From contig JACVTC010000034.1 of the NCBI GenBank assembly GCA_016946835.1, positions 372,001 through 436,000 on the forward strand: a stretch of 64,000 bases of DNA. Reading direction: 5' to 3'. Source of the DNA: Neocallimastix lanati (nom. inval.). Its lineage: Eukaryota > Neocallimastigomycota > Neocallimastigomycetes > Neocallimastigales > Neocallimastigaceae. Under the pieces are notes generated by a model that was not told the DNA's origin, made no database searches, and was given only the letters and a program-made list of their open reading frames with translations. Position 1 is the first letter of the stretch, and each line of letters opens with the position of its first letter. The position numbers were made by a program, and so were the translations under genes. Shown here one piece after another: positions 20,601-51,135 of the stretch.

Positions 20601-21543
20601 AGTAATAAAAAATGATAATACTAAAAAAGCTAATTTAGTAGCAAAAGGTTGTCAGCAAAAAGAAGGTGAAGATTTTATTTCAACATATTCCCCTACAGCC
20701 CAATATGATAGTTTATGAATTACCATCGCAATAGCTTCAATAAATAAATGAAATTTAAAGCAATTAGACATAAAAGCAGCATATTTAAATGCTGACCTTA
20801 ATGATACAATTTATGTTAAAATTCCAAAAGGAGATAAAAATTATAATAAAAATAAAGTATGGTTATTGAAAAAAGCACTATATGGTTTAAAACAAGCTGG
20901 ACGTATGTGGAATGAAGAAATCACTAATTATTTAAAGTCAATTGATTTTAAACAATATAAATCAGACAAATGCTTATTTGAAAAATATAATAAAGAAAAT
21001 AAATTAATAGGATTATTAACATTATACGCTGATGACATTTTATTAACTGGTGAAGATTATGAAATCAAAAATATAGTTAAGAAATTAAAAAGTAAATATA
21101 CAATTTCAAAAGAATCTGATGCCAGAAAAATTATTGGAATAAATATTTATAAACCTAAAGATGGTTATAAAATTAATCAAGAAGATTATATAAATAAAAT
21201 TATTAATAATTATAATATGAATAAAACTAAAATAATAAAATATCCATGTAGAAAAATTTCAAATGAAGAAAGAAAAAATGCAAAACCTGTAGATGTTGGA
21301 AAATAAAAATTACTTTTAGGTTCACTATTATATATTGCAATAAAATCTAGACCAGACATTACATATGCAGTTAACCAAGCATCAAGAAATTGTGAACAAC
21401 AAACTACTATAGACTATAAAGCATTACTACTGATATTACAATATTTAAAATCTACAGTAAATAAATCAATATACTATAATAGAAAAAATAGATTAGTTGG
21501 ATTTTCAGATACTGATTACGCTAATGATGAGGCCACTAGAAGA
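17675..21543 (+). mobile_element. Ty1/copia element D internal region (fossil, left half)
   Basis: Plus-strand copia polyprotein in the order Gag, protease, integrase, reverse transcriptase, RNase H start. Gag begins at the ATG at 17848 (MGRKRTQETEISEVS) and ends in an Asn-rich tail with a CLLCKKDGH half-knuckle near 18740-18770. Protease: TTWIIDSGTGLNLTNN (about 19017-19065). Integrase pre-domain: SLWHSRLGHFN near 19480. Reverse transcriptase: IIDTRWVLVIK near 20580, LDIKAAYLNADLND near 20765, LYGLKQAGRMWNEE at about 20880, and LYADDILLTGE at about 21025. RNase H starts with GFSDTDYAND at about 21500 and stops at the inversion junction. Broken, with roughly six or more breaks. Confidence 0.8.
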
Positions 21544-21545
21544 TC

Positions 21546-22285
21546 AGTTAGATTATACAGATCAATCCGCTATTTCAGTAATTGATTATGAAAATGCCTT
21601 GAGACCTCGTAGTAAGATTTATGAAAGATTCGCCATTGCTGAAGCTTCTGATCTCGAAACTGCCTGTAACTTGGATGAAAGTAATGAAAATATATTAAAT
21701 GAAATGCAAGGAAAACAAGAAATGAGGAGTTCTTATGGTAATACCAGTAACTATAATAGAAGAAATAATTTTTCCAATCTGGTAGATTAAATTATAATAA
21801 TACCTTCATGGATCAATATAATAATAATTCAAATTTTACACTATTCAATAATAATTTTAATACAATCAATAATTCAGGAAATTTTAATAGAATAAGAAGA
21901 TTTAATAATTTGCCATTAAATTCACCATCTAAAATGAATTCGACCGGTTTGAGAAATTTTAATAATGGAAATTTTAAAAACACAAATTTTTAATGGTAAC
22001 AATGGTAATAATTATAATAATAGTAACAATAATGTTAATTTTAGAAACAACAAATTTTAACAGTAATAATGGTAATAATTATAATTATGACAATAATAGT
22101 AATATAAACTAAACTCAATTAATAATAAAATTTATAATAAAAATTATAATAAAAATTATAATAAACATTATAAAAATCGTAATAATTATATCAATAACGT
22201 TGAAAATAACAATTTACCTATTGATTATGAGATGACATAAATTATGAAAATTTAAGTCACATGATTAACAATATGATATACGATT
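21546..22285 (+). mobile_element. Ty3/gypsy Gag fossil N (rear half of Gag)
   Basis: Plus strand: DQSAISVIDYENALRPRSKI, then an EASDLETACNLDE helix, then a very Asn-rich tail extending to about 22250. This matches the Gag of element B (ISVIDYENALRP is identical). No zinc knuckle was recognised. The tail near 22130-22210 resembles the Asn-rich tail at 47742-47830. The matching front half of such a Gag lies at 49475-50570 on the other strand. Several breaks. Confidence 0.7.
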
Positions 22286-22747
22286 TGATATGCTGGACTT
22301 TTATGCGCTACTAATTTTTAATAGTATCGTTATATTTAATTAACCTTTATTAATATATTTTAATTTATAAAACCCAATTAACCAAGGGTCTTCTCAAAAC
22401 TACAATAAAGAAGATTATTAGGAAATCTTTATAATAATTTAAATATATATTAATAATAATAAATATACATTTAAAATATATTATATCGGAGTATAGTAAA
22501 ATATATAATAAATATATATTAATAAATATAATAAATATAACTATATAATTCTTAAAATGAAAATAAGAACAATAAAGTTAAATATATAAGAATATAATTA
22601 TATAATAAATATGAATATAATAAATAATATCAACTATATATATTTAATTATAATTAAAATAACTAAAACTATTTCATTATATTATATATTATAATATATA
22701 GAAGTATTATGTATTTTTAATATAAACTTTAAAATAAATATGCATGG
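22286..22747 (-). repeat. Partial LTR of element-B type
   Basis: Starts TGATATGCTGGACTTTTATG and follows the first 460 bp or so of the LTR at 47044 (shared GGGTCTTCTCAAAACTAC and TAAAATAAATATGCAT). It then departs from that LTR. No internal region or primer site lies beside it. It is a truncated LTR fossil in the orientation of element B. Confidence 0.75.
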
Positions 22748-22835
22748 TTAATATAACAGAATTAATAATTACAATTATTTTATTATTTTAATATTTAGTA
22801 TTATTTTTCAATAAAGTTTTAAAACAAATAATTAA

Positions 22836-23910
22836 TGATACGGGCTGGGGTTGAAACACTAAGATATTCAAAACAAAAAAAAAATAAATATTAACACATA
22901 ACTATAAAAATAAATTTGGAAACAAGAAAAAAAATTAAATTTTAAAATATTCTTTATTTAAATTTAAAATTAAAATTATTTGTTCCTAGTATTAAAAAGA
23001 AAGAAATTTATTCTTCTTTTTATACTTTTATTTTAATACATTTTATTTATTATTAATATATTCTTTATAAAGAAAACTATTATAACTATTTTATTTTAAT
23101 TTTTAACTATTATTTTAAATTATTTTTTTAAAAAAAAAATAATATTTATTAAATTAAAATATAAAAAATTAATTTAAAGATTGTATCACGAAGGGCATTC
23201 CGGGCGGTAGCTTCTTCTTGATATTGTTTTTCAGAGAGAGAATTATACAGAATTGATATTTTCTGTATTTTAGATCATTTTTTTATTATTGAAATTCTGT
23301 ATTTTAGTTCATTTTTATTTTTAATAAAGATTTAATTTATTTTTGATTTTTGATTTATTTTTAGTTTATTTCAAAGGTTTAGAAAATATTATACAGAAAC
23401 TTATAATTCTGTATTTTATATCAAATATTTATTGAAATAGGTTTTTATTATTCTTAATATAAAAATAAGAATTAATAATGATTTAAATATTATATAATTT
23501 TTAATAAGAATATTTAATAATAATTTTTATTATATTTAATATTAATAAAAGATTTTTATTAGAATATTTAATAATTTTTATTATATTTGATATTAATAAA
23601 AGATTTTAATAAGAATATTTAATAATAATTTTTATTATATTTAATATTAATAAAAGAATTTTATAAGAATATTTAATAATAATTTTTATTATATTTAATA
23701 TTAATAAAAGAAATTTATAAGAATATTTAATAATAATTTTTATTATATTTAATATTAATAAAAGAAATTTATAAGAATATTTAATAATAATTTTTATTAT
23801 ATTTGATATTAATAAAAGATTTTAATAAGAATATTTAATAATAATTTTATTTTATTATTATTAAGAGTATTTAATAGGAAATACAAGGTATTTAGTGACA
23901 CCCCGTATCA
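22836..23910. mobile_element. Solo LTR Z, 1075 bp, TTAA on both sides
   Basis: Begins TGATACGGG and ends CCCGTATCA, a perfect 9-bp inverted repeat at its ends. TTAA lies on each side (22832-22835 and 23911-23914). The ends resemble those of the element B and H LTRs (TGATATGCGGG, TGATATACGGG), so the same clade is likely. It contains a 54-bp tandem array at 23507-23860. No internal region is attached. The right TTAA is also the left flank of element A. Confidence 0.7.
23507..23860. repeat. 54-bp tandem repeat inside LTR Z
   Basis: Units starting AGAATATTTAATAAT begin at 23507, 23561, 23612, 23666, 23720, 23774 and 23828. Spacing is 54 bp except one of 51. Copies differ by a few bases. Confidence 0.85.
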
Positions 23911-23914
23911 TTAA

Positions 23915-24473
23915 TGGTACGTTATTTTTATATATTGTACCTTTTATATGATTTGGGGAAAGCAAGTTGTAAAACTATAAAATAATATATTCTAATAAAA
24001 GAAATAAATAAAAAAATTATAACACAAAATTAATAATAAATTTTAATAAATAATAATGTGTTACTTTTAAGTCTTTATTTTATTTATAAGTTTTGTTCTT
24101 TAAATAAGTACATTTAAATTTATTATAACTTTATTATATCTTTAAATTTATATTTTAATAATAATATTAACCAAAATATCCTAAATATTTATTCACCCGA
24201 ATAAATATTTTATAATTCCTATTCTAACTATTATATTCTTTAAAGATATTAAATTTTTAAGTTCCTCCTTTGTTAATATTTTATCTTTCACTTATTTTTA
24301 TACTATAATTTATCTTAATTCTTATTGGTTATCTATTAATTAAAATTATTTTTATTAATATTATATTTTTATATACTAATTAAACCTTATACCTATTATA
24401 ATAAAATAACTAAAGAATTATTTATTTTCTTATATTTTTAATAATTTATTCTATTTTAGTGAGTAACGTACCA
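23915..24473 (-). repeat. Element A 3' LTR
   Basis: 559 bp with ends TGGTACGTTA and TAACGTACCA. On the internal side, the minus strand shows a purine-rich run with GTGGGGGCG just before the LTR (24474-24485), the expected polypurine tract. Confidence 0.85.
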
Positions 24474-24485
24474 AGACGCCCCCAC

Positions 24486-24732
24486 TTTGTCTAGACTTCG
24501 TCCCTTGAAGTCGTGATTTATGGATATAATGAATAAAAATTTTTATAAAAATTAAAAAAAAATATTATTATATTCTTTAAATTTTTTTTTTTTTATATTT
24601 GAACTATTTAACTATATAAATTTTTTTTTTTTTTTTTATAATATATATATACAATTTCATACAATAATGTACATGTATACATTACATATATGTAATTTTA
24701 TACTATATTGTATATGCATATATATATATATA

Positions 24733-24767
<35 letters not shown>

Positions 24768-25309
24768 GTAAGTAAATTGTAAAATTATGTTATATTGTTT
24801 ATAAAATTTTATAAAATTACATACTTGTTTACTAATTTAAAATTTAATTTATATATATTCTGTCTATATATCTTTGTATATTTTAATATTATATTTTACT
24901 ATTCTATTTTACTATTCTATTTTACTATTCTATTTTACTATTCTATTTTACTATTCTATTTTACTATTCTATTTTACTATTCTATTTTACTATTCTATTT
25001 TTACTATTCTATTTTAATTTTATATTTTACTATTATAATCTATTATTATATTTTTATTATATTTTATTATTTATATCTAATAAAAGAAATTACTGGATTA
25101 GAAATGTGAATTAATTTATTAAACTTTTCAACAATAGCTAAATGTTTATTTTTGTAAGTTGAAATTCAAACGCGTTTTTTTTTTTTTTTTTTTTTTTTTT
25201 GTCGTTATCTATATTCTGAAGATTATATAATTGTATTATTTATCTATCTCTATAATTTTTTTTTTAAAACGTGTTATTGTCAGGAAGTTATAGGTTGTAT
25301 TAAAATATA

Positions 25310-25343
<34 letters not shown>

Positions 25344-25443
25344 TTTTTGATAAAAACCATATTTATTTTATATATATTATTTTTTAATTTATAATTGATA
25401 ATAAATATTGATAAATAAAAAAATTCATATGTAAATATTATTA

Positions 25444-25478
<35 letters not shown>

Positions 25479-25579
25479 CATTCTTTGATTATCTACTTAT
25501 TAAAAAAAAACTTGCTATAAATATTGTTTTAATTATTTAATAATTATTGTAAATATATTTATATTATCTGATAAGTATC
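24486..25579. repeat. Element A 3' untranslated region with simple repeats
   Basis: Low-complexity stretch inside element A. It has a 13-bp tandem array (unit CTATTTTACTATT, about nine copies, 24895-25015), TA runs near 24715 and 25305-25325, and four long T tracts at about 24737-24765, 25177-25200, 25327-25350 and 25443-25471. T tracts on this strand are A tracts in the element transcript. Confidence 0.75.
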
Positions 25580-28500
25580 TTAGTCTTCATTTGTGAGGTT
25601 TAGTTCCGTAAAGTATGGAATAATATTCTTCAGGTGGATATTACGTTCTGCTAGTTCACCAGTCGTTGGGTCGCATACTGTCACTGTGTTTAATTCTCTT
25701 TTAACAATTTGTAATGGTCCTGTGAAGAATGGGTCTAGCTTCCTTCGATTAAATACTTTCACTAATACTAAGTCCCCTGGTTTATAGTCACTTCTCATTC
25801 TTTTGATTTGTTTCCTTCTATCGGACCAAAGTTTGTTTGCGGTTTCAATATTTCTTATGGCTTCCTTTATCCACTTATCATGTATCAAAAATTTTCTGAG
25901 CCAGTACTCTTCATCACTTTCCCATTCATTTTTCTTTTCAATATTAATGGATAATTCGAAAGGTTGTATATCCCTCCTTCCATACAATAATTCGAAGCTA
26001 CTGTGTTTTGTAACTTCACTTTTACAAGTACGTAGTGTTCATAAAGCACTATATAAAGTCTCATCCCAATGCTTATCTTTTTTTCCCAGGATTCGTAGAT
26101 ACTTCCCAATTTCTTTGTTTCTGTTTTCAACTTCTCCATTCGAGGCTGGATGGTAAGTTGAAATATAGTGAACATAAACATCGTGTAGATCTAAGAATGC
26201 TTTTGTTTTATCTGCGGTGAACTGTGGACCATTGTCTGTTACCAGTATCTCAGGGATACCATGTCTTGAGAATACTTTCTTTAAAAAGTTTATCACGTCA
26301 TCTGCTTCCGATGTTACTAATGGTTCAGCCTCTACCCATTTGGTTAAATAGTCAACTAGAACAATTATAAATCTATTACCTCTTGGAGTTTCTGGTAGGG
26401 GTCCAATTAAATCGAGTCCAACTCTTGAGAAGGGTATCCTGGAGAAGTGGCATTATCTTCTGGAAATTGATTTAATGTTTGTGGCTTACATGTTTGGCAT
26501 TTGTAACAACATCGAATATAATTATTAATATCCTTTTTCATATTTTTCCAATAATAATCTCTTTTTAGTCTGTTGTATGTTTTATATACTCCCTCATGGC
26601 CAATTTGATGAGCTTGATCAATTAATGTTAATTTTTCTTCTATGCTTTTCACTATGTACCTTAATTTATCGCCTTGTTTATAATATTCTTTGCCATCAAT
26701 AATTATTATTCTTTTTTTGATATAATCTTCTATAAATTTATTAATACTATTACTATTATTATTATTATTATCACTTATACCATTATCACTATTATCAACT
26801 TCATTATTATTGTTATATATAATATTTATTGTTTCTTTAGGTTTATCAGAAGTTTCCAATCTAGACAGGGCATCAGCTATGACATTCTTCCTCCCCTCTT
26901 GATATTCGACTTTAACATTCAAGATAGATAATTCCGTAACCCATTTGAGATGTCTACTATTGGTAGGTTCACGATTATTAAATATACCAACAAGCGGTTT
27001 ATGGTCAGTATAAACTATAGTTATAAAAGAATTACCAGTGATAAATTGTTTAAATTTCTGAACACAATGGAAGACAGCTTTACCTTCCAGGTCAGTAATA
27101 CTATAATTTTCTTCCGATTTACTTAATGATCTACTTTCATAAAAAATAGGAACCTCAAGATTATTTTTATCTCGTTGTAGAAGAACACCTCCTAGTCCAT
27201 CTCTAGAAGCATCGGTACGTATAATAAATGGTTTAGAAAAATCTGGGGGAGTTAATATAGGTGCTTGTATTAATTTATTTTTTAATTCTTCAAATGCTTT
27301 AATACACTCTTCGGAAAAGTTAAATATCGAGTTCTTCTTTAAAAGGTAAAATAATGGTTTTGCTATTTGAGCAAAATTTTTAATAAATTTGCGATAATAT
27401 CCTATAGCACCAAGAAAAGATTTAAGTTGTGTAGTATTTTTAGGTGGTAACCAATTAACAATTGTTTTTACTTTTTCCGGAATAGGAGAAATACCATCTG
27501 TCGAGAGCTTGTGACCAAGTAGTGAAACTTCTTTTTTAAAGAATGAACATTTTTCCAAATTAATTTTTAATCCATTGTCTTTTAGTATCTTAAAAACACG
27601 ACGTAAGTGTAAAATATGTTCATTTATATCTTTAGAAAATATAACTATATCATCAATATAAATAAATACACATTCACCGATTAATTCAAAAAATATTTTG
27701 TTCATTTCTCTCTGAAAGGTTGCTGGGGCTTTACATAAACCAAATGGCATTACTCTGAAGTTGTAATTGCCATACATTGTGGTAAATGCAGTCTTTTCTT
27801 TATCTTCGGGAGCCATTGGAATTTGGTGGTATCCTGAAAAAAGGTCAATCGTAGACAGGATTTGTGAATTATTTCCGATTTGCAAAAGAATTTCATCGAT
27901 CAAAGGTAATGAATATGAATCTTTAATTGTTATATTATTTAATTTACGATAATCAACGCACATTCTCCAATCTTTATTATTCTTTTTAGGTACTAAGACA
28001 ACAGGAAAGGATCAGGCAGAGAAAGACGGTTCAATCAACCGATTATTGATTAAAAATGTAAGTATTTCCTTGAGAGCCATAGATTGAGCCTTAGAAAGTT
28101 TATATGCTTTCAGTTTTATTGGTTTAGCATTTGGAATTAAATTAATTCTATGTGGTAATAATTTAGAAGTTCCAAGGTCATCAGTCTTCACAGCTAATAT
28201 GTCTTTAAAAATTTCGAATAGCTTCTTTATAGAGTTCTTATGTTCACTAGGTACGGCATTAATAATATCATTTATTAGATTTTCTTTAACATTAATAGTT
28301 TGTTCTAATTGTTTATCTTTATTCTGAATAACTATAGTAAGTAGTAAGGGTGTAGATGCATTTGTGTTTTCTTTATTAATTTCTTCTCCTGAGTCAATTG
28401 GATTTTTCAGATTAATATCGTAGTAAAGGTCAGCTAATTTCTTGTAAGCATTATCTTCATTAATATAATACAATGAGTCATTAACTAGGTTAATATCAAA

Positions 28501-29703
28501 CCTATTTTTCTTTAATGAATCAACTCCAATTAGAATGTCGAAAAGGTCATCTTTTTCAATTACTCTAAAATAATCTTGGAAAGTCTTGTCTCCTATAGTT
28601 ATTTCTAGCTCATATATTTCGGATTCAATTGTCGAGTTTGAACAAGCTTGAAAAATAGTTTCTGAGATTCTTCCTATGGCAGGTTTGTTTATATTATATT
28701 TTTCTAAAGCAGATCTTGTAATAGCATTAACACTAGCGCAAGTATCTAAAAATATCTCACAATTGGTATTTTCAACTTTTCCTTTTACTTTAATTATTTT
28801 AAATTTATTAACTATTGTCATCACATTATTAATAGCATTACTTTTAGGAGTAAGCTTCAAAGCTTTACTAAATGCTGTTCTGAATTTTGGGAATAGATCA
28901 AGTAAGTATCCTAATTTAGTAATAACTTCAGTAGATGCAACTTCTTTTAATAGATCTTGTATTAAATAATCATCAAATTGTTCTATTAATTTAATATGTT
29001 TTTCATTAGATTCTTTGTTGTTACTTAATGAAGGTGGAGATTTCTTTGCATTTTCAATAATATCTTTAATTCTTTCTTCATGATTGTTTCTTTTACTCGT
29101 TCTAATATTCTTCTCGGCTATAATTGAAGGATCTAAGTACTCCAATTTTTCGGTTTGATTACTATTAGAGGTAGTTTTATTATTTTTATCTAAAGTAGTA
29201 TTCTTATCTACTGTATTTGTAGACTTATTTTTATTAATTTCATTATTTTGTATACTATCTTCAATATCATCTTTAATCATAATTACATCTTCAATTGGTA
29301 AAGTATTAGTTTCCATATTTTGATTCTTTTGGTTATGCACCTTTTTTTCTTCATCAAGACAAGCATCATATTTGTTGTTATGTCTCATAGCTGCTGTTTG
29401 AATCGGCGTCGGATTATTCTTTAATGTATCATTGGATTTCTCTTTATTATAAGGAATGGAACTTACGTTTTTTTCTTTTTGTTTTCTGACAGCTGGTGCA
29501 AGAACTTCAATTGGTTTATTAATATGTAAAGGTTGATAATTTGATATTGATTTATTATGGTTATTCATATTATTATTATTAATATATTTATTATTAATAT
29601 TGTTACTATTATTATTAATATTGTTACTATTATTATTAATATTGTTACTATTATTATTAATATTTCTATTATGATGATAACAATTATTAGCATTGTCTTC
29701 CAT
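25580..29703 (-). mobile_element. Element A pol region (fossil)
   Basis: Order along the minus strand: an Asn-rich linker, then a retroviral-type protease region (IFLDTCASVNAITRSAL, about 28720-28770), reverse transcriptase (CVDYRKLNNITI near 27930, FIYIDDIVIFSK near 27640), RNase H (IIRTDASRDGLGGVLL near 27190-27240), integrase zinc-binding domain (HQIGHEGVYKTYNRL, CCYKCQTC near 26490-26610), integrase core (VTDNGPQFTADKTK, HPASNGEVENRNKEI near 26110-26250), and a tail with FTGPLQIVK and RNIHLKNIIPYF near 25600-25740. The catalytic motifs are easy to read, so decay is mild, but the region is broken. Confidence 0.85.
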
Positions 29704-29741
29704 GTGGTTGGTTTGTTTACTGGAAGTTATCCTTCTCCCAT

Positions 29742-30922
29742 TTAGTGGTTTAAAGATTTGTTGATCATTCCCCTTTCTTCCATTTCCGCTAATTGTTTGA
29801 ACGAATAGGGGCAGTTTGAAGCCTTATGCCCATTTTGGAAACAACGGAAACAAGTAGTTTTCCTATTTTGGTAGTCTTTATTAAAACTTTTATTATATTC
29901 CTTATTTGGAATAACCCCTGGATTTCTATTTATGGTAGTTGTAAGTATATTAGCATCAATACCGTTATTATTGTCATATACGTTACTATTTTGAGAAACT
30001 GCGGTAGCTATATTGTTGGTATTGTTATCGTTACTAATATTATTGTTTTTATAATTGTAATTAGAGTTATTACTATTTTGTATCCTATTAGGTAAATAAT
30101 TATAATTATAGTTGTTGTTATCCATGATATTATTCATATTTTGATTGACGTTAGTATTATAATTATTATTGAGGTTCATAAATCTTGAACCATTACTAAA
30201 GTTTCGGTTATTCCTTCTAAAAGGTGGACGAAAATTATTATTGTAAATATTTCTATTAGTACTTTGATTTATATTATGTTTATAAGAAGGTTCTCCATAA
30301 AAATTCTGATAAAATGGGTGATTCATTATAGGACTATCCAAATTTTGCACAAACATTAAATTAGATCTATTCTTATTATTATCCTGCCCAATATTACTGA
30401 TTATTTCTTTTTCAGCTTCTTCGGATACTTCAGCTACCTTAAAAGCTTCAGATAAAGTTTCGCATTCGGTTGTCATAACTCTTGAACAAGGAAAGACCCG
30501 TGTACTTATAGCAGTAGTATAATCCTTTATTGAAATTAATTTTGATATTCTCTTGGTAGGCCTTTATATAATATTTTGTATCTATGATTAAATTTTTTTA
30601 TAGTTTCTTTATTATTAATTTTTAATGATTTTAATACTGCACATTTATCATTAGGTGTGATGTGCAAGTACTCCTCAACGGCAGCTTGGATTTCTTTGAA
30701 GCTGGGATATCTAACTTCGTTTCCATTCTTACTTTTTAAAGAGTTTAAGGCCCCATGCATGTCTTCTTCGACTGCTTCTTTGGCCCAGACAAAAATTCTT
30801 CTTGGTTCCACAACATCGTAGAGCTCCATCACTCTGACGAATTCATGCATCCATCCATCAACATCTTTTCCATAGTCGATGAGATTTGGTAATGCTTTCT
30901 GTAATTTGGCAGCGTCAATCAT
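29742..30922 (-). mobile_element. Element A gag region (fossil)
   Basis: Minus strand. The front part opens MIDAAKLQKALPNLIDYGKD and contains the Gag core with VDGWMHEFVRVMELYD and KFNHRYKILYKGLP. The rear part is Asn-rich with one CCHC zinc knuckle, CFRCFQNGHKASNC, near 29800-29845. The knuckle binds the element RNA in this family. The region is broken but well preserved. Confidence 0.8.
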
Positions 30923-31147
30923 GATAAATAGAATTTATTAAAAAAAAGTAATATAAAATAGTTATATTTATTTATAATATAATAATCGTTTTGTAAAAAA
31001 AAAAAATGAAGAAACAAAAAAAATAAAAATTGTTTTATAATAATACAATAAATGCTTTTGTACTATAAATATATAAAATAAAAAAAATGAATGAATTAAA
31101 GTAAAGTAATTTCTCTTATTATTTTCATATTATTTTATCTTGCTTCC

Positions 31148-31164
31148 GCCCGGATTCTCCACCA
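31148..31164 (-). promoter_or_regulatory. Element A primer binding site candidate
   Basis: On the minus strand, four bases after the 5' LTR, TGGTGGAGAATCCGGGC reads as the complement of a tRNA 3' end with CCA. Elements B and H have TGGTGGAGATATCGGG at the same place. The tRNA species was not identified. Confidence 0.65.
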
Positions 31165-31168
31165 ATTT

Positions 31169-31681
31169 TGGTACGTTATTTTTATATATTGTACCTTTTA
31201 TATGATTTGGGGAAAGCAAGTTGTAAAACTATAAAATAATATATTCTAATAAAAGAAATAAATAAAAAAATTATAACACAAAATTAATAATAAATTTTAA
31301 TAAATAATAATGTGTTACTTTTAAGTCTTTATTTTATTTATAAGTTTTGTTCTTTAAATAAGTACATTTAAATTTATTATAACTTTATTATATCTTTAAA
31401 TTTATATTTTAATAATAATATTAACCAAAATATCCTAAATATTTATTCACACGAATAAATATTTTATAATTCCTATTCTAACTATTATATTCTTTAAAGA
31501 TATTAAATTATTAAGTTCCTCCTTTGTTAATATTTTATCTTTCACTTATTTTTATACTATAATTTATCTTAATTCTTATTGGTTATCTATTAATTAAAAT
31601 TATTTTTATTAATATTATATTTTTATATACTAATTAAACCTTATACCTATTATAATAAAATAACTAAAGAATTATTTATTT
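31169..31681 (-). repeat. Element A 5' LTR, inner part
   Basis: Inner 513 bp of the 5' LTR. It ends in the target duplication TATTT (31677-31681) created by the chromovirus. The remaining outer part is 39734-39784. Confidence 0.85.
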
Positions 31682-37605: not shown

Positions 37606-37628
37606 AGACTCCTTATGATGTTCATTAG

Positions 37629-38636: not shown

Positions 38637-38641
38637 GCTAA

Positions 38642-38652
38642 GGTAGTTACCA
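38642..38652 (-). promoter_or_regulatory. Possible chromovirus primer site
   Basis: TGGTAACTACC lies on the minus strand 17 bases after the 5' LTR and just before the gag ATG. It begins TGG as a tRNA-primed site would, but the gap from the LTR is long, so self-priming or another site is equally possible. Confidence 0.3.
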
Positions 38653-38669
38653 AAATTCGGTAAGATTAT

Positions 38670-39733
38670 TGTAAAGGATTTCTAATGTGGGTTAGAAATA
38701 TATAAATTTTAAATAATTTAACTAGGTCAACAAGTCCTTATATAGTAATAAAAAGGATTAGATTCTTATAAAATATTGATCAAATAATTATTGAAATAAA
38801 AGAATACTTTTTATTATAATAAACACTAATAAAATATTATAAAAATATATTTAAAAGTTTCTTTTTTATATTTATAACTTTTATTTATAATTATTATTAA
38901 TTAATTATTATTATTACTATAATAGATTATTCTTATATTAATAATCTTACAAAGATTTAATTCTAAATCAAATTAATGTCTTTTTATATTATTTTCTAAA
39001 AATAATTATTATAATAATATTTATTTAATACATGTATTTTTTATATATATAAAACTAAACTATTTAATTAATAAACTATCTAAATAAAATATAAAACTAA
39101 AGGAGATATTGTTTTTATTATTCATTATTCATAAGACTAGTCATTTTCATTATTCATATTGAGTCAGAATATTATTCTAAAGTCATTATCTAAATAATTA
39201 TAACTAATAAAAATAAAACATAATTGTTAGTAAAAATATAATATAATAATTCGTATTTAAACATAATATAATTATTTGTTATTAATGGATAAATTATATA
39301 ATAATTTGTATAGTAATGGATTAATTATTAAGGGGCCCTATCAAAATAATTTCTCCAATATTATATATATATTATTGATATTTATCCAAAACTTTGAATC
39401 ACGATATCTCGTGAACCAGTGGAGATATCGAGCTAAAAATTTGATATTTTTCTTCTCGGAAGCTAAAGCTTCCGAATGAGCATAATACCAAGCGCGAAAC
39501 TCAATTATTTGGCGAGATATGACTCATTGAAGTGAGTCTTAAATCACACATTATTTTATTATTTAATTATTGAAAAATTTAAAATAAATTTTTATATTTA
39601 AATTGTTTAATATGAATCATATTTAGTAATAATAAATAATATAATATTATATAATGAATTAATGACGATTGAATAATATTTTTGTTTGCAATTCCAAAGT
39701 GATTTCAAACTAAATCACCTCGTAATCGCGACA
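38670..39733 (-). repeat. Chromovirus 5' LTR
   Basis: 1064 bp, same length as the 3' LTR and without visible differences. It contains the same three hairpins (39402-39538). The promoter is expected inside it by family, but no TATA box stands out in this AT-rich sequence. Confidence 0.9.
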
Positions 39734-39784
39734 TATTTTCTTATATTTTTAATAATTTATTCTATTTTAGTGAGTAACGTACCA
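39734..39784 (-). repeat. Element A 5' LTR, outer part
   Basis: Outer end of the split LTR. It begins with the second TATTT copy and ends GAGTAACGTACCA, followed by TTAA. Confidence 0.85.
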
Positions 39785-39800
39785 TTAAATTTAAAAAATA

Positions 39801-39873
39801 TTATTTCTGGTATAGTTGTTAGTAACTAATACCATGAATCAAACTACTTAGGGTTCGATTCACATTTATTATT
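39801..39873 (+). other. tRNA-like sequence with Pol III A and B boxes
   Basis: TGGTATAGTTG at 39808-39818 fits the A-box consensus TRGYNNARNNG, and GTTCGATTC at 39853-39861 fits the B-box consensus GWTCRANNC. They are separated by 34 bp, normal for a tRNA gene. GGTATAGTTGTTAGTA is close to the D-arm of eukaryotic tRNA-His and tRNA-Asp as I remember them. The acceptor, D and T stems do not pair well, so this is not a working tRNA. A tRNA pseudogene or the head of a tRNA-derived SINE fits best. The promoter could still attract Pol III factors. No second copy was noticed in the window. Confidence 0.55.
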
Positions 39874-40335
39874 ATTTTATAGTTTTATTCTAAAAAATAT
39901 CTAGAAGATTCTTTATAGTTCAAGAAATTACTAGAATTTCTTGATAATTCTTGTGTTTAATTAATTAAAATTTATTCTATTAAATTCTTAATTCTATTGT
40001 TTTCTATTTTTTCTAAATTTTTCGATTTTTAAGAACTTTTTAGAAACTTTTATTTTTATTTTTTAATAACTTTAACTTTTAAAAAAAATATAAATATGAG
40101 TAAAATTCTTATTAACAAATATTCTTTTCTTTGTGTTTTTTATTTTAATTTTGTTTAGTTAATAAAACTTAATTTTTTAATAAAACTTTTTTTAATATTA
40201 ATACTATATCAACCCTTGCGGCTTATAGTATTATAATAAATATAATTAATAAAATAATTAAAAAAAAAATAAATAAAAAATAAAATAATTTTTGTTTTTT
40301 TTTGAGTGTTATTATATTTATTATAATATTTTGTT
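39874..40335. other. Unassigned AT-rich stretch after the tRNA-like sequence
   Basis: May be the body of a SINE if the tRNA-like head is one. No coding signal. It contains TATCAACCCTTGCGGCTTATAG near 40207-40228, unlike its surroundings, which I cannot assign. Confidence 0.3.
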
Positions 40336-40574
40336 ATAGTTAAATTATATATATAATAATATTCTTATATATATTTAGAAGAAATTAACAATTTAATTTA
40401 ATATATTAATATATTTCATATTATAATGAATAATATAATATGTATAAATATTGAATAATATATGAATAAGAAATTATTTCGAATATTATTATTGACAAAA
40501 GAGATATAAATTTAATATTTAATAATTATTATTAAATATACAAATATGTGGCTACACATATTTGTTTTATATCA
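40336..40574 (-). repeat. Element B 3' LTR, partial
   Basis: Matches 47507-47741 with few differences and ends TTGTTTTATATCA. The outer part is missing or replaced. Between it and the integrase (40575-41180) lies AT-rich untranslated sequence. Confidence 0.75.
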
Positions 40575-41181
40575 GAAATGCCCTCGCTAAAATAGCTGAT
40601 TACTAGTGAAATTGAAATTTATCTCTATACGAGAACAATTCTCAATTGAATCTGTAAATTAGCTACAAATTCAATAATAAGTTGAAATGATCGTAGTACA
40701 AATAAGGAAAAATATAAAATTGAAAGAAATTTTATATTTTTGTGAATAATTATTAAAATCTGTATTAATGAAGATTAATTGTATTATTTGAAAATTTTAT
40801 AAAATTTTTAACTCAATTTTTGAAAATTTTTCATTAATAAAAAAAATTTTTTTTTTTTAAAATAATTATATATAATTTTGATATTATAATAATTGAATAA
40901 TATATATAATTATTAATAATTAATTTTGAAATTTAAATTGGAAATGTAATTTAAGAATTTTATTTTGAAATTTTGATATTTCAATTTCGAAATTTTTTCT
41001 TAAAAAAAAATAAAATAAAATTAATTATGAAATATATATATAAGTTAAATGTCCTATTGTCATAAATATGAATAATATTTTGCTATTTTAACTGTAAATA
41101 TTAAAATGAATTGCTGAAATTTAAATTCAAAATGTTGAAATTTATTATTATTTATTATATTTTTGTATTTATAATTGATTT

Positions 41182-43917
41182 TTACTTATTCTCTATAAGG
41201 TAATTTTTAATATGGATATTTCTTTTTAATATTACTCCTGACCTATCTTCTTGTAGTTTCACCGTATTCCAAGTTATTTCCTTTATCGTATAAGGGCCAA
41301 TGTAGTATGGGTCCAATTTTTGTCTTTGAAATAATTTAATTTTTACCTTATCACCAACTTTATACTCAGGATGTTTTTCCATACTTCTTTTTGCTTTTCT
41401 TCTAGTCTTCCAATAATTAATTATACTCAATTTTTTGTTTGCAGTATCCTTTACCCATTTAGTATGTTCCAAAATTCTTTCAATTAATTCTTCGTCAATT
41501 GAGCATTCAACAGGTTCCTCCAAAGAATTCAATAAGGTAATTTCAGTAGGAAGTAAATCTTCTCTTCCATATAAAAGTTCAAAACTAGAGTATCCACTAA
41601 CAGAGGATTTTGCCGTCCTAATAGCCCATAAAGCCAACGGTAACAGAGTATCCCATTCATCGTTCTTACCAGCAAAATTCCTTAATTGTTTTCCTATTTC
41701 TCGGTTTCTATTTTCTACTAAACCATTAGAAGGTAGATGATAACTAGCAACAAAATGAATGTAAACTCCATATAAATCTAAGAAAATTTTTGTATAATCA
41801 CTGTTCAATTGTGGTCCATTATCCATATTAATTATTTGTGGTAGTCCATGTCTACTAAACACATTCACTAAGAAATCAACCACATCTTGAGAAGTAACAG
41901 AAGGATAAGCTTCTGCTTCAGTCCATAAAGTGAAATAATCTACACAAACAATTATATATTTATTACCTTTAGTAGTAGTTTTTAAAGATCCAATAATATT
42001 TAGACCCATTCTAACAAAAGGAGCTTCTACAGGAGTTCGAAATATTTCAACCAAATTAGAAAGGCGCTCAGATCTATTAAGTTGACATATTTTACAAATA
42101 GATATATATTTTTTTTATATCTAAAATCATATTTTTCCAATAATAATTTTTCTTAATTCTATCATACGTCTTTTGTAACCCTTCATGGCCGATTCTATGA
42201 TCCATTCCGATAATTTTTATCTTTTCTAGATAATCATCTATCACTAGTCTTAGTTTATCTTTATCTATAATATATGTTTTATCATCTATAATAACAATTC
42301 TATCTTTTAAAAACTTTTTCATGAATTCAGAGATATATTTTTCATTTTCGGCTTCGTCCAAAAAGTTTGATTGATCATTTTCATTATTGTTATTACCAAT
42401 AATTTCTACGTTATTTTCATCAACAATAATATTATTACTTTCAATATTGTTTCCCAAATTATTATTATTTTCTTCAACAATAGCATTTACTACAATATTT
42501 TCTTTTTTTCTAATGCGAGATAATGCATCAGCAATAATGTTCCTTTTCCCTGGTTGGTAGACTGACTGAATAAATCACACCAACGAGCGTGTTTACTAGT
42601 ATTAGGTTCACATTTCATAATGATAGGGACTAATGGTTGATGATCTGTATACAGTATTGTCTGGAACGGATTACCTAATATATATTGTTTAAATTTATTT
42701 ACACAAAAATATGCCGCAGTACCTTCTAACTCTGTTATCGGGTAATTAAGCTCTGACTTATGCAGGAAACGACTAATATAAAATACTGGGTGTTCTATTT
42801 CATCATTTTATAGTTGCAATAAAACACCACCAATTCTTTGATAACTAGCATCAGTGCGTATAATAAATGGTTTATCATAACTTGGATAACACAAAATAGG
42901 TGCTTGACAAAGAGCTTCCTTTAATTTTTCTATACAAGTAGTATGCTCATTAGTCCATTCAAAAGTAGAATTTTTCCTTAGTAATTTGCATAATGGGGAA
43001 GTTAATGTAGCATAATTTTCAATAAAATTCCTATAGTAAACCACTATTTCAAGAAAAGAACGTAATTCCGTAACATTAGAAGGATTATCCAATTTCTTTA
43101 TTGCATCAATCTTCTTTTTTAGTGGTAATAATCCTTTGTTTGAAATCGTATGTCCTAAAGCCTCCACTTCAAAAACACAAAAATGACATTTCTCAATATT
43201 CATTTTTAATTTAAATTTTCTGAGAATTTTAAATACATTTGTTAGGTCGATTAAATGTTGTTCAATGGATGGTGAATAAACAATAATATCGTCAAGATAA
43301 ATTTGAACACATTTATTAATTAAGTCAAAGAAAATCCTATTCATTTCGCGTTGGAAGGTTGCCGGAGCATTAGTCAATCCGAAAGGCATTACCTTAAAGT
43401 AATAATTTCCAAACTTAGTTGCAAAAGAAGTAATTTCTTGGTCGCTTTCATACATAGGTATCTGGTGATACCCACTAAAAAGATCAATAGTAGAAAATAT
43501 TACTGCATCTTTCAATGCATCAAAAATTTCTTGAATTATAGGGATGGCATAAGCATCTTTTTTTGTTATTTTATTTAATAACCTATAATTTATGCACAGT
43601 CTCCATCTATCATTTTTCTATGGTACTAGAACAATAGGAGAAGACCAAGGTGAATGAGAAGGTGAAATTAATCCTTTGTCTATTAATTTTTTTAATTCTT
43701 CTTTTAGTGCTGAAAGTTGTACCTGGGAGATCCTATATGCCTTTTGTTTTATTGGCTTGCTACCTTCTAGTAATTCAATATGGTGAGGTAGCAATTTGGA
43801 TGGTTCTAAATCATCACTAGACATAGCTATTACATCTGAATATGAAGTTAATATGGATTTAATTTCATTTTTAAAATTTCCATCCTTGATATCCATATTG
43901 CTGATTAATTCTTCCAA
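41182..43917 (-). mobile_element. Element B reverse transcriptase, RNase H and integrase region (fossil)
   Basis: Motifs in order on the minus strand: LLPHHIELLEGSKPIKQKAY and the first RT helix (about 43650-43900), FSTIDLFSGYHQIPMYESDQ near 43450-43510, VQIYLDDIIVYS near 43280, FIIRTDASYQRIGGVLLQ near 42815-42865, RNase H end near 42500-42800, integrase zinc-binding start HRIGHEGLQKTYDRI near 42140-42200, core IVCVDYFTLWTEAEA, INMDNGPQLNSDY and NGLVENRNREIGKQ (41690-41960), GPYTIKEITW near 41290, and RNIHIKN at the end. The region is close to element C. Confidence 0.8.
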
Positions 43918-45190
43918 AATTTTATTTTTTTAGTTGTATTAATTTTATTCGTACTAATTACATTATTAATACTAGTATTATTCTCTAATATATAACAAAA
44001 CATACACTGTGTATGAAGTTCATGCACATTTTCTAAAGGAACCAATGGGACTGCACAAAAGGTAAACACACCATTAACATTATTAATACCACTTTTTACG
44101 TATAAATATTTACTATCTGCATCTACTAATAATTTATAATCTGCTTGAGTTTTTAAATTAATTATTATATCAAATATTGAGTCATCATTATCAAATACTC
44201 TAAAGACTGCATTAATTTTTAGAGTACCAATTTGTACTTCAAATTTTACCATTTCATAAACACGTTCTTCCGTATTAGATAATGCCTGATGCACTCTACC
44301 AGAAGTAGAACCAACTATAGTATAATTTTTAATATTTTTATTTAGAAAATTTCTGGTTACCAAATTTGTATTACTACCACCATCAATTAATACAGCAGCA
44401 GAATGACCATTAACTGTACCTTTGACTATAGCAATATCGTGCTCTTGAATTTCTCTTGTAGCGTAGCAATGGTTAGGATTATTTACTATTTCAAATTCTT
44501 CTATATCATTATGATATTCTGCACATCCTACCGCTGCATCATCATCCTCAGTTCTTACCTTTTTAAAACTTTTGGTGATATCTGAACGTAGGGCACTACT
44601 TATACCTATTAATTGGGCCAAAGTAATATTTGCTGGGGTATTTTGTAATTCTTCTATAATATCATAAGGTTCAATACCTCTAATAATTTAATGATTTGGC
44701 CTACCCTAGTAGTTTTTTCCTTCTTATTATTTTGTTCCAATATTTTTGTACTATTATTTTTATCGTTAAATTTATTAATAATATTAGATGCAGGTATATT
44801 TAATTCCACTGAATCTATGTCAATTTTGTTTTCCAATGTGTCATTTTTATTATTATTTTTATTATTTATATTATTTTTTGTAGTCAAGTTGGATGTATCA
44901 TTATTGCTATTATAATTACTTGAATTATTATTAATTAAATTTCCATTAATATTATTATTATTGATATTATTTTCATTATTATTATTGATTCCTTTATTAT
45001 TAATATTATTCTTAATATTATTATTTAAATTTGATTTTAGAATTTTACGATTTCGTAAATTGTATAAGATATTATTGTTAACATTATTACTTATATTTAA
45101 ATCGTTATTGTTATTTTCATTTATATTGTTATTGTAATTGTTATTATTTATTTTAATATTATTATTTTTTTATAATTTCTTTTTGGCTTA
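43905..45190 (-). mobile_element. Element B protease and Asn-rich linker (fossil)
   Basis: The minus strand has a retroviral-type protease with AAVLIDGGSNTNLVTRNFL (about 44345-44400) and FDIIINLK near 44150. Upstream (44650-45190) is a long Asn/Ile-rich low-complexity linker coded by AAT/ATT repeats. A DGG at the active site replaces the commoner DSG/DTG. This is reported as seen. Confidence 0.7.
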
Positions 45191-45325
45191 GGTAGAATGC
45201 ATATCTTTCATCTCTACTACGTTTTGCTGCAGCAATAATTGTATCATAATTATTGTTCCATGTTGCTGCAGTTATTACAGGAGAAGTGGCAATTTGATTA
45301 TGGGAAGTTTGCCTTCTTCCATCAT

Positions 45326-46350
45326 TCAGTTTTTTTGTAAATTAAAATAATTTATAAAGTTTGGATCTTGTTTAATTTTGGCTAATTCAGTACAATCCTT
45401 AACAAGATGACTAGGTTGGTTACAGAAATAACATGTTTTAATCTGTAAGTTTTGCATTCTATTTACCAAGTCATCCATTCCATCATTATTAGGTATTTGG
45501 TTGTTGTTAATGTTATAATTATTGTTTCTATTATTTAAATAATTATTTATATTATATGGGTTATTGATTCCATTATTATTAAAATTATTCGGCATATTAT
45601 GATTATTTCGATGAATGAAATTGGTAGGTATGTTCGTGGAAGTATTCCTATTGTTTCTAAAATTCAGACCATTTCTTTTCCATGAATTATTGGAATTATT
45701 TACAAGATTAGAAACAGGTTGATTCATAGGGGAATGTTATAATTATTATTTCTTTCATTCCTCCTATTATTCCTATTGTAATGTGATTCCTGTAATATTT
45801 TCTCATATTTTTCTGCTTTACTACAAGCGTCTTCTAGGGAATCACATTCCTCCATAGCAATTTTAGTATAAATCTGAGTCCTAGGTCTAAGAGCATTTTC
45901 ATAATCTATAACCGAAATAGATGCTCTATCCTCTGTCTCTAGTAGGTCGTATAATTCTAAATACCTGGTATTGAAATCATATACGGTTTCGTTTGGTTCG
46001 ATAATAATACGTTTTAATTGACGTAATTTATTATCTTTTTGGTTTTCTCTCCAATACTTTTTCTTTATTAGTTTCACACATTCATCTAATGTAAGAGGTC
46101 TATTTACTTCTGATTCTTTTTCTTTCAATACAATGTCATCTTCAGCAGCGGTAATAATATAACTAAATTTATTTTCATCAGTAGTAATGCCTTCTCTCTT
46201 AAACCAGTCATTGATCCTAAATTTCCAAAGTTCCGCGTCCCTACGAGATCCACCAATCCTTGGGAGAGTTTTTGTATCTACGTCTGACATAGTGCTGTTG
46301 ATACTATTATAATCACTACTAATATGTTCACTACTACTACTACTTCTCAT
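45326..46350 (-). mobile_element. Element B gag region (fossil)
   Basis: The front part opens MRSSSSSEHISSDYNSINST and includes LPRIGGSRRDAELWKFRIND and a YLELYDLLETEDR core (45724-46350). The rear part is Asn-rich with a CCHC knuckle CYFCNQPSHLVKDC near 45390-45435. The same Gag type is present in fossils at 21546-22285 and 49475-50570. Confidence 0.8.
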
Positions 46351-47021
46351 AAAAGAAAGTTAAATATTTTTTTTTTTTTTTTAATTCGTTATTGCGTTTT
46401 GGTTTAATAACTAATAATACAAATAACACTTTCTATATTTATTTTATTTTATTTATTTTATATCCTATTCCTAGTTATTATTAAATATGAAAATATGTAT
46501 TATTTTTTTTTTATAATTCTATTGTGAAATAATTTATTATTCCACTCTTTTATTTTGTTATTGCTACTTTTATTTTGTTATTGCTAACTCTATTAATATT
46601 ATATACAAATAATTATTATCCTATATATAGAATAATTATATTATTTTTTTATTTTATATCAAAGTTTTTTTTTTTTTTTTTTTTTTGTATAATTATTATT
46701 ATTACTATTCAACTAAAATATTACTAAACAATTATAACTAATCCTATTTTAATAATTTTAATATAAAGGAAAATTAAAGACTTGTTCGTTTTTATTCTGG
46801 TCCGAATTCCCAGTTGTCTCTAATTATATATCTTTTTAATAATTTAAATTAGTTTTGTGTTATTTAATGATTTATTATTATTAATTATAACCAATCTCAG
46901 CTCAATAACCAATTATAAAAAAAAATAAAATATAATATTTAATATGTATAATTAATCCTCAAATTTATTTATTTATTTTTTTTTTTTTTTTAAAAAACAA
47001 TATAACAACACTATTGCACAT
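46351..47021. other. Element B 5' leader
   Basis: AT-rich untranslated leader between the primer site and gag. It holds several long T runs (46365-46382, 46666-46686, 46979-46991) and the sequence GACTTGTTCGTTTTTATTCTGG near 46779-46800. Similar wording (GACTTATTCGTTTTTATCCTGG) appears in the leader of element H near 50910-50935, so this may be a conserved leader motif. Confidence 0.5.
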
Positions 47022-47038
47022 CCCCGATATCTCCACCA
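47022..47038 (-). promoter_or_regulatory. Element B primer binding site candidate
   Basis: TGGTGGAGATATCGGGG on the minus strand, five bases after the LTR. Same type as elements A and H. Confidence 0.65.
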
Positions 47039-47043
47039 ATTTT

Positions 47044-47741
47044 TGATATGCGGGACTTTTATGTGCTACTAATTTTTAATAGTATCGTTATATTTAATTA
47101 ACTTTTATTAATATATTTTAAATTATAAAACCCAATTAACCAAGGGTCTTCTCAAAACTACAATAAAGAAGATTAGTTATTAGGAAATCTTTATAATAAT
47201 TTAAATATATATTAATAATAATAAATATACATTTAAAATATATTATATTGGAGTATAGTATAATATATAATAAATATGTATTAAAATAATAAATATAATA
47301 AATATAACTATATAATTCTTAAAATGAAAATAAATAAAATTAAAAATATAAGAATATAATTATATAATAAATATGAATATAATAAATAATATCAACTATA
47401 TATATTTAATTATAATTAAAATAACTAAAACTATTTCATTATATTATATATTATAATATATAGAAGTATTATGTATTTTTAATATAAACTTTAAAATAAA
47501 TATGCATAGTTAAATTATATATATAAGTATATTCTTATATAATTTAGAAGAAATTAACTATTTAATTTAATATATTTAATATATTTCATATTATAATGAA
47601 TAATATATGTATAAATATTGAATAATATATGAATAAGAAATTATTTCAAATATTATTATTGACAAAAGAGATATAAATTTAATATTTAATAATTATTATT
47701 AAATATACAAATATGTTGCTACACATATTTGTTTTATATCA
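47044..47741 (-). repeat. Element B 5' LTR
   Basis: 698 bp, plus-strand ends TGATATGCGGG and TTTTATATCA. Related partial copies lie at 22286-22747 and 40336-40574. The LTR starting at 17189 (+) shares the AAAACAAATATGTGTAG end. Confidence 0.85.
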
Positions 47742-48549
47742 GATTTTTATAATTATTACGATTTTTATAATTTTTATTATAATTTTTATTATAATTCTTA
47801 TTATAATTTTTATTATTATAATTATTGTTATTAAATCTTTATAATTATTATTATTATTAAATTTAGTTTGATCCATGGTTCTGCTTGTTCTCCATTGTAA
47901 TGGCATTCATTTGTTAAATGACCATGTTGTCTACAAATGTGACAGTATTTGTTTGGAATTCTTCTTTGAAAATTATTTTGTCTGTGGCTTTTATATCTAT
48001 TATTTCTATTAAATACTAAGTCTAAATCTATGGGATTATTGTAGTTATTATAAATGTTACGATTATAATGATTAATTTGTGTTTTGATTATTTCGTTCAT
48101 GCGTTTTATAAATATATTTCTGGATTTGATAATATCATAATAATCTTTAGCTGTTTTACCAGGTTCAGGCAAGAAAGCAATTTGTAATTCCTTTGGTAGC
48201 GCCTTAAACATATACTGGATCTTGTCATTTTCACTCATATCGTAATTGGCTGTTTTAAGTTTGTTAAAAATGTTTAACATATCAGATAAACATTTTAAAA
48301 CTTCCATATAGTTTCGAGGCTTCATAATTTTCAGTTTCTTGATTAACTTCTCTACAATTAGTTCATCTGCTTCTTGGTTTATCTCTTCAAGTTTATTGAT
48401 CATGTCATAAGCAGATTCTGTGGTTTATTCTAGATACATATTAATTTATATTTAATTTATAATTACAATGTATTTAATATAATATAATTTAATATTTTAT
48501 TAAGTTTGAGCTAGAATATAACTTTATATTAATAAAGTTAACAGGAATT
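47742..48549 (-). mobile_element. Ty1/copia Gag fossil I with possible 5' LTR
   Basis: The minus strand reads a copia Gag: DMINKLEEINQEADELIVEK, NYMEVLKCLSDM, FKALPKELQIAFL, KTAKDYYDIIKSRN, and a CCHC knuckle CHICRQHGHLTNEC near 47905-47945. The tail is Asn-rich and is cut by the LTR of element B. Upstream, TGTTAACTTTATTAAT at 48549 (reading leftward) looks like a copia LTR start. Broken, few breaks. Confidence 0.65.
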
Positions 48550-48678
48550 TACATTTAAAATTATAAATTTAATAAAATAAAATTCATTTTATACATATAA
48601 TATAAATTTTATATAAGAATATAATATCTATAATTAAATATAAAATAAATATAAAATAATACATAATAATATATTATA
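48550..48678 (-). repeat. LTR fragment of the element C/H type
   Basis: Shares GGAATTTACATTT, AAAATTATAAATTT and ACATATAATATAAATT with the element H LTR (51271-51365). It directly flanks the copia LTR at 48679, with the TATAA target duplication between them. It is probably the rest of the LTR interrupted at 17498. Confidence 0.6.
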
Positions 48679-48854
48679 TGTCAATGAGTGAAGCTCAGAT
48701 TAATTATTTTATATTATATATTTTATTTATTTAATGATATTTTATTTAATAAAGAAGAATCCTTTTCTAAATAATAATTATTACATATATTTGATAATAA
48801 TTTTATTTTATAATAAAGCATAATGTATATAATTTTATTTACTATATTTTAACA
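48679..48854 (-). repeat. Copia element E, 3' LTR (176 bp), partner of the LTR at 17499
   Basis: Plus-strand ends TGTCAATGAGTG and ATATTTTAACA. Same length as the LTR at 17499-17674 and differing from it at about seven positions. Its outer flank on the minus strand is TATAA, equal to the flank of the 17499 LTR. A polypurine tract (TAGGGGGAA on the minus strand, 48855-48863) sits just inside. Confidence 0.85.
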
Positions 48855-49471
48855 TTCCCCCTACATTATGTCTTTTTTAGATATATTTTATTTTATTTTA
48901 TTTTATTTTATTTTATTTTATTTTATTTTATTTTATTTTATTTTATTTTATTTTATTTTATTTTATTTTATTTTATTTTATTTTATTTTATTTTATTTTA
49001 TTTTATTTTATTTTATTTTATTTTATTTTATTTTATTTTTATTTTATTTTTATTTTATTTTATTTTATTTTATAAATTATATCGTTATATTTCTTAATGT
49101 TAATACCTGATACTGGTTTTATTAAAGGATCAGCTAACATATCATTTATGCTAATATATTCTAATTTTATATTCTTCTCTTTTATTTTTTCTTGAATAAA
49201 TTTATATCTAGTATCAATATGTTTGCATCTACCTTTAGCATTTTCATCTTCAGCTATTGCTATACAAGCTTTATTATCTACTTTTATTTTTATTAAGACA
49301 TTCTTATTAGTTATTTCTTCGAATAAAATTTTTAACCATATTCCATAATGTTTTGCGCATTCAGTAAAACTAATAAATTCAGCTTCAGCTGTTGATAATG
49401 TAACATTTCTTTGAATTTGTGATTTCCAGGAAATTGGTCTATTTCCAAGTAAGAATATATATCCACCTACA
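48855..49471 (-). mobile_element. Copia element E: RNase H second half (fossil)
   Basis: Minus strand: VGGYIFLLGNRPISWKSQIQ, then LSTAEAEFISFTECAKHYG, then a segment matching IKVDNKACIAIAEDENAKG and GRCKHIDTRYKF. This is copia RNase H from just after the RRS motif to its end. Element D at 21500-21543 carries the part before it on the other strand. Confidence 0.75.
48885..49070. repeat. (TTTTA)n microsatellite
   Basis: About 36 copies of TTTTA with two slight interruptions near 49040-49055. It lies in the 3' untranslated part of the copia element between RNase H and the polypurine tract. Confidence 0.95.
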
Positions 49472-49474
49472 GAT

Positions 49475-51130: not shown

Positions 51131-51135
51131 ATTTT

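What the first reader, a model, noticed from the sequence alone, without database searches (positions are those of the whole stretch)
21543..49474. A 27.9-kb inversion bounded by two exchanged retroelements
Seen: at 21543 a copia RNase H (+) stops just after its RRS motif and a Ty3 Gag (+) begins mid-core. At 49474 a Ty3 Gag (-) stops at that same mid-core point and a copia RNase H (-) begins just after RRS. Both elements are therefore cut once, with the halves exchanged and reversed. ATC is shared at the two junctions. Independent support: the 176-bp copia LTRs at 17499-17674 (+) and 48679-48854 (-) are about 96 percent alike and have the same outer flank TATAA, as expected of one insertion. 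Inference: a single inversion through 3-bp microhomology moved everything between, including elements A and B and the chromovirus.
Basis: partly seen in the sequence, partly recalled or inferred. Interest (0 to 1): 0.88.

Follow-up and report, generated by a model that had tools for sequence, protein, structure and literature searches.

The report
Fungal inversion through two retrotransposons
A stretch of DNA in what is probably a gut fungus was cut inside two unrelated jumping-gene relics, flipped and rejoined without losing a base; this is an ordinary kind of chromosome break repair, but the record of it is unusually complete.

Summary
Confirmed: two reciprocal chimeric junctions. A copia RNase H and a Ty3-type Gag are each cut once, halves exchanged and reversed, both junctions at ATC (21543-21545 plus; 49474-49472 minus). 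All 17 other copia and 11 other Gag copies examined read straight through that triplet, so nothing was lost or gained. Among scored matches junction 1 is unique; junction 2 recurs only on C619, a redundant contig of this locus. New support: the copia sits in a Ty3-family LTR whose halves, beside the duplicated target TATAA, now lie on opposite sides of junction 1. The breakpoints lack homology.

Corrections: 96% LTR identity is family background. Three shared bases arise by chance in about 10% of random cuts. That everything between was moved is not shown: element A with its nested chromovirus (23915-39784) has LTRs 99.6-100% identical, against 96% for the copia, so it probably landed later, and the flip may have moved only about 12.05 kb. 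Known kind of event; no reads or relatives could be examined.

The parts
21543..21545 (+). Junction 1: shared ATC; copia RNase H to the left, Ty3-type Gag to the right
   Evidence: unique among scored matches
49472..49474 (-). Junction 2: shared ATC; on the minus strand Gag (from the right) meets copia RNase H (to the left)
   Evidence: also on redundant contig C619
17499..21545 (+). 5' part of the split copia element (5' LTR 17499-17674; ORF fragments separated by stops, one with RVT_2; start of RNase H)
   Evidence: (RVT_2 at 20752-21303; no Pfam hit on 18198-18767)
48679..49474 (-). 3' part of the same copia element (rest of RNase H 49063-49473, purine-rich tract, 3' LTR 48679-48854)
17494..17498 (+). 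Target-site duplication TATAA, copy beside the 5' LTR
48674..48678 (-). Target-site duplication TATAA, copy beside the 3' LTR
17189..17498 (+). First half of the Ty3-family LTR into which the copia inserted (the matching element end, integrase and LTR, runs from about 15837)
48543..48678 (-). Second half of that same LTR, now inside the inverted segment
   Evidence: (four family members)
49472..49750 (-). N-terminal half of the split Ty3-type Gag (outside the inversion)
21543..22128 (+). C-terminal half of the split Ty3-type Gag (inside the inversion)
21546..49471 (.). Inverted segment as it stands now (27,926 bp between the two ATC triplets)
23915..39784 (-). Element A, 559-bp LTRs (23915-24473; 31169-31681 continued at 39739-39784) with 2 differences, apparent target duplication TTAA; carries the chromovirus in its right LTR
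31682..39733 (-).
40230..47743 (-). Element B, older; LTR ends about 90% alike (299 of 333 aligned), boundaries not fixed

Best explanation
This is one conservative (cut-and-paste) inversion. Sequence of events: (1) a copia element inserted into an LTR of a Ty3-family element, duplicating TATAA (shown). (2) Two double-strand breaks fell at about the same time, one inside the copia RNase H and one inside the Gag of a Ty3-type element lying in the opposite direction (inferred). (3) The piece between was rejoined the other way round by end joining, perhaps helped by pairing of the 3 bp ATC, without loss or gain of bases (products shown, pathway inferred). (4) Probably afterwards, element A and then the chromovirus inserted into the inverted piece and lengthened it from about 12.05 kb to 27.9 kb (order A then chromovirus shown by nesting; later than the inversion only likely). 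I see no sign of a function: both elements were simply broken, and the copia part to the left is already interrupted by stops.
For: Exact reciprocal exchange against 17 of 17 other copia copies and 11 of 11 other Gag copies examined. TSD TATAA on both copia ends, with 5-bp duplications in all five other copies whose two LTRs were both fetched; 5' and 3' flanks of different copies agree in 4 of 149 pairs. In four of four Ty3-family members examined, the match to the copia's right flank begins within 41 bases of where the match to its left flank ends, and the joined empty site aligns to one of them across the insertion point. The two halves of each element have largely the same near relatives. 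The breakpoint flanks are no more alike than random: 13/50 and 20/50, random median 16, 95th percentile 22. Among scored matches no other place carries these stretches at allele-level identity: at most 97% (copia), 91% (Gag) and 93% (host LTR, over part of it). Relative age: copia LTRs 7/176, A 2/559, chromovirus none in about 1.07 kb.
Against: No reads and no second isolate could be examined. Junction 1 rests on one contig, and C619's support for junction 2 may come from the same reads. The genome searches scored only 40 candidates each, so an un-inverted allele is not excluded. TATAA is a common target word: three of the four chance flank agreements are TATAA. No target duplication was found for the split Gag element, so its two halves are tied together by exact reciprocity and shared relatives only. 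The host-LTR alignment has gaps to the right of the insertion point (8, 18 and smaller). LTR ages are relative, rest on few differences and could be distorted by gene conversion.
Confidence: 0.9

Rival explanations
1. Assembly artefact: the assembler or a chimeric molecule flipped the segment.
For: The region is almost wholly repeats; junction 1 is on one contig only; no reads were available.
Against: Mis-joins usually occur at shared repeats (general knowledge), but the two breakpoints are not alike beyond 3 bp. Both reciprocal junctions are exact to the base. Junction 2 is also on a separate contig, C619, identical over the 8,338 bp that include it, though possibly built from the same reads.
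Confidence: 0.06
2. Inversion by homologous recombination between inverted repeats (NAHR).
For: Several inverted repeat pairs of about 70-82% identity lie in the region.
Against: The two breakpoints do not lie in the two arms of any listed pair, and the two breakpoint neighbourhoods have no homology.
Confidence: 0.01
3. Two separate chimeric elements made by template switching during reverse transcription, each inserted on its own.
For: Reverse transcriptases do make chimeras (general knowledge).
Against: Two independent chimeras would not be expected to be exactly reciprocal to the base, nor to leave the copia's host LTR and target duplication divided between the two sites. Neither junction is a repeated unit among scored matches.
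Confidence: 0.01
4. All of A, B and the chromovirus were present when the segment flipped, so 27.9 kb moved at once.
For: They lie inside the segment now; the order of A's insertion and the inversion cannot be read directly.
Against: A and the chromovirus have LTR divergence of 0.36% and 0%, against 4% for the copia that must predate the inversion. If the inversion date is spread evenly over the copia's age, it predates A with a chance of about 0.9 (own estimate, wide error).
Confidence: 0.15

Closest known systems
Simple cut-and-paste inversions by non-homologous or microhomology-mediated end joining (described for Drosophila, e.g. PMC6861252, passages seen)
   Same: Two breaks in non-homologous sequence, rejoined in reverse; a unique event rather than a recurrent one.
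   Different: The passages also describe staggered breaks that leave duplications at the ends; here there is no loss or duplication. Both breaks fall inside multicopy retrotransposon coding sequence, so the ancestral order can be read from other copies in the same genome without an outgroup.
Transposon-associated rearrangements in the fungus Verticillium dahliae (PMC4971763, passages seen)
   Same: Fungal rearrangements with breakpoints in transposable elements; six inversions among 19 large rearrangements there.
   Different: There, of 12 cases reconstructed in detail, eight lie over highly similar TEs and the authors infer homology-based repair (the passages seen do not say how many of the 12 are inversions). 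Here the two elements are unrelated and the repair was homology-independent.

Membership tests
Conservative inversion by end joining | Two reciprocal junctions whose halves correspond to two ancestral sequences | tested here: met
   17 of 17 copia and 11 of 11 Gag copies examined read through the site
Conservative inversion by end joining | No extended homology between breakpoints | tested here: met
   13/50 and 20/50 identical bases, within the random range
Conservative inversion by end joining | Little or no gain or loss at the junctions | tested here: met
   Exact to the base, 3-bp overlap only
Microhomology-mediated end joining (as opposed to classical NHEJ) | Microhomology longer than chance | tested here: inconclusive
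   3 bp or more arises in 11.4% (window) or 9.6% (these elements) of random break pairs
Conservative inversion by end joining | Un-inverted order present in a relative or allele | tested here: inconclusive
   Not found in this genome (40 of 3450, 344 and 575 candidates scored); no relatives held
NAHR inversion | Breakpoints inside a pair of similar inverted repeats | tested here: not met
Copia (Ty1) superfamily, the split element | RVT_2 reverse transcriptase, TG...CA LTRs, 5-bp target duplication | tested here: met
   PF07727 at 20752-21303; LTR ends and TATAA
Copia (Ty1) superfamily, the split element | RNase H downstream of the reverse transcriptase | tested here: inconclusive
   Name taken from the finding and motif recall; Pfam gave no hit on 49063-49473
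Ty3-type Gag, the other split element | Ty3 capsid profile | tested here: inconclusive
   Only the related Gag of element B was scanned: PF19259 at 20.5 bits, below its cut-off of 29.1; the split halves themselves were not scanned

The most novel reading that the evidence does not exclude
In this repeat-saturated fungal genome, transposon nests may be reshuffled mainly by homology-independent end joining rather than by recombination between the many near-identical repeats, so that reciprocally split elements like this pair recur and can be used to count inversions in a single genome without an outgroup.
Probability: 0.15. Interest if true: 0.5.

Novelty: new member of a known kind. Interest (0 to 1): 0.3.

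Why it matters
Simple inversions are normally found by comparing two genomes. Here multicopy elements serve as their own outgroup, so one genome gives both breakpoints to the base, the ancestral order, and a relative timetable (copia, then inversion, then probably A, then chromovirus). It also shows a rearrangement in a repeat-rich genome that did not use the repeats as homology. It would matter mainly as a method: a genome-wide search for reciprocally split elements could measure the inversion rate of poorly sampled lineages.

Tried and rejected
LTR identity as proof of a single insertion was rejected: other family LTRs match the window's 5' LTR at 93-97% and its 3' LTR at 92-96%, apart from the redundant C619 copy at 99%. 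The two window LTRs share one uncommon base, but L058 has it as well. Microhomology as proof of mechanism was rejected. A target duplication for the split Gag element was looked for through four family members, but the LTR match on the right stops near 51366 and no 3' end was identified inside the segment. The very permissive alignment gave AT-rich noise and was not used. Exact-pattern scans of IMG/VR for junction 1, junction 2 and an intact copia junction gave 0 matches each; this is uninformative, because the intact control was empty too. Literature: inversion breakpoint + retrotransposon + microhomology + fungus and anaerobic fungi + genome assembly + retrotransposon + Neocallimastix gave 0 papers; some searches gave listings with starts of abstracts; passages of two papers were seen, neither paper was read whole. 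No RNA-family or structure tool was used.

Full report
What was checked. The window is C268:372001-436000 of a 199-Mb, 762-contig genome. It is AT-rich (GC 13-32% per 2 kb) and, judged from its ORFs and repeats, consists largely of nested LTR retrotransposons. Few relatives of the copia RT fragment bear an organism name; among them are Piromyces sp. E2 and proteins tagged 'Orpsp1', read from recall as Orpinomyces. The host is therefore inferred to be an anaerobic gut fungus (Neocallimastigomycota). The species is not identified. The names chromovirus, Ty3 Gag and copia RNase H are taken from the finding; for the two split elements, Pfam confirmed only the copia reverse transcriptase.

The junctions. 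Junction 1 reads copia-AGAAG-ATC-AGTTAGATT-Gag on the plus strand at 21543-21545. Junction 2 reads Gag-CTATATA-ATC-TGTAGGTGG-copia on the minus strand at 49474-49472. Of the 40 loci held at that point, 39 matched and one (L040) did not; four of the 39 are the junctions themselves. Removing seven double-fetched places leaves 17 other copia copies and 11 other Gag copies, mostly the best-scoring ones. Every copia copy continues from ATC into copia, and every Gag copy from ATC into Gag. The exchange is therefore reciprocal to the base, with a shared triplet and no loss or gain.

Uniqueness. Only the window covers the whole 201-bp junction 1 query (40 of 77 candidates scored). Junction 2 is covered by the window and by contig C619 (40 of 150 scored). 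C619 is 13,089 bp long and collinear with window 47145-60103. In its first 10 kb it differs by 1 mismatch and 6 gaps, all within the first 1.7 kb; the remaining 8,338 bp, which include junction 2, are identical. The next 2.96 kb are 98.6% identical. C619 is thus a redundant contig or second haplotype of this place. It partly supports junction 2 and says nothing about junction 1. No un-inverted allele was seen: outside this locus the best identity over any long matched stretch is 97% for the copia part, 91% for the Gag part and 93% for the host LTR (40 of 344, 575 and 3450 candidates scored).

One copia insertion. The flank TATAA on both sides is better. All five other copies whose two LTRs were both fetched show a perfect 5-bp duplication, and flanks of different copies agree in 4 of 149 pairs, although three of those four are TATAA itself. 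The best argument is new. The copia's left flank is the first half of a Ty3-family LTR. In four of four family members examined, the match to the copia's right flank, read on the minus strand from 48678, begins within 41 bases of where the left-flank match ends (right-flank scores 157-170; best of ten shuffles 106). The joined empty site aligns to L043 across the insertion point, with some gaps further right; the right flank alone scores 166 against a maximum of 129 for 200 random stretches of the window. So one LTR, split by one copia, now lies on both sides of junction 1.

Mechanism. The 50 bases to the left and right of ATC in copia and Gag agree at 13 and 20 positions, while random pairs have a median of 16 and a 95th percentile of 22. 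Recombination between repeats is therefore very unlikely, although inverted repeats exist elsewhere in the region. Two cuts chosen at random share 3 bp or more in 11.4% of cases, or 9.6% within these two elements, so ATC may have helped but is not evidence of a special pathway. End joining of two double-strand breaks is the inference.

What was inside at the time. Element A has 559-bp LTRs with 2 differences and an apparent TTAA duplication; it runs from 23915 to 39784. The chromovirus (31682-39733, duplication TATTT, LTRs identical over about 1.07 kb) sits inside A's right LTR. A plus the chromovirus are thus one 15,874-bp block, counting one TTAA. The copia, which must be older than the inversion, has 7 differences in 176 bp. 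On an even prior over the copia's lifetime, the inversion is older than A with a chance of about 0.9 (own estimate, wide error). Without the block the inverted piece is 12,052 bp.

Place among known things. Cut-and-paste inversions by end joining are described (PMC6861252, passages), and fungal rearrangements at transposons are well known (PMC4971763, passages). In the latter, eight of 12 cases reconstructed in detail lie over similar transposons and the authors infer homology-based repair, unlike here. The event is a new member of a known kind; its completeness, not its nature, is unusual.

Noticed in passing
   Followed up: yes
window 47145-60103; contig C619 (L039, L040): A 13-kb contig of the same assembly duplicates this stretch almost exactly: redundant contig or second haplotype.
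   Followed up: partly
window 23393-23926: Tandem array with a period of about 54 bp (eight overlapping family members) that reaches the left edge of element A.
   Followed up: no
window 48885-49044: (ATTTT)n array between the copia RNase H and its purine-rich tract; in another copy (L002) the same stretch of the element is about 120 bp shorter, so the array length seems to vary.
   Followed up: no
window 49751-50461: About 710 bp between the Gag start and the 5' leader that lie adjacent in three of four other copies (L042, L043, L044): probably a further insertion; 50048-50461 resembles sequence beside another copy (L042:334-703).
   Followed up: no
window 22284-22751 and 47042-47513: Direct repeat of about 470 bp at 95%: a fragment like the 5' end of element B beside the split Gag.
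   Followed up: no
window 4892-5594 and 8902-9588: Direct repeat of about 700 bp at 91%, possibly the LTRs of another element.
   Followed up: no
window 47834-48424 (-): Copia-type gag fragment (PF14223) just inside the copia's 3' flank.
   Followed up: no
L063 and L064 (C33:42874-43046 and C33:8906-9078): Two LTRs of the copia family 34 kb apart on one contig with identical 15-bp flanks on both sides, as if the region around a solo LTR had been duplicated.
   Followed up: no
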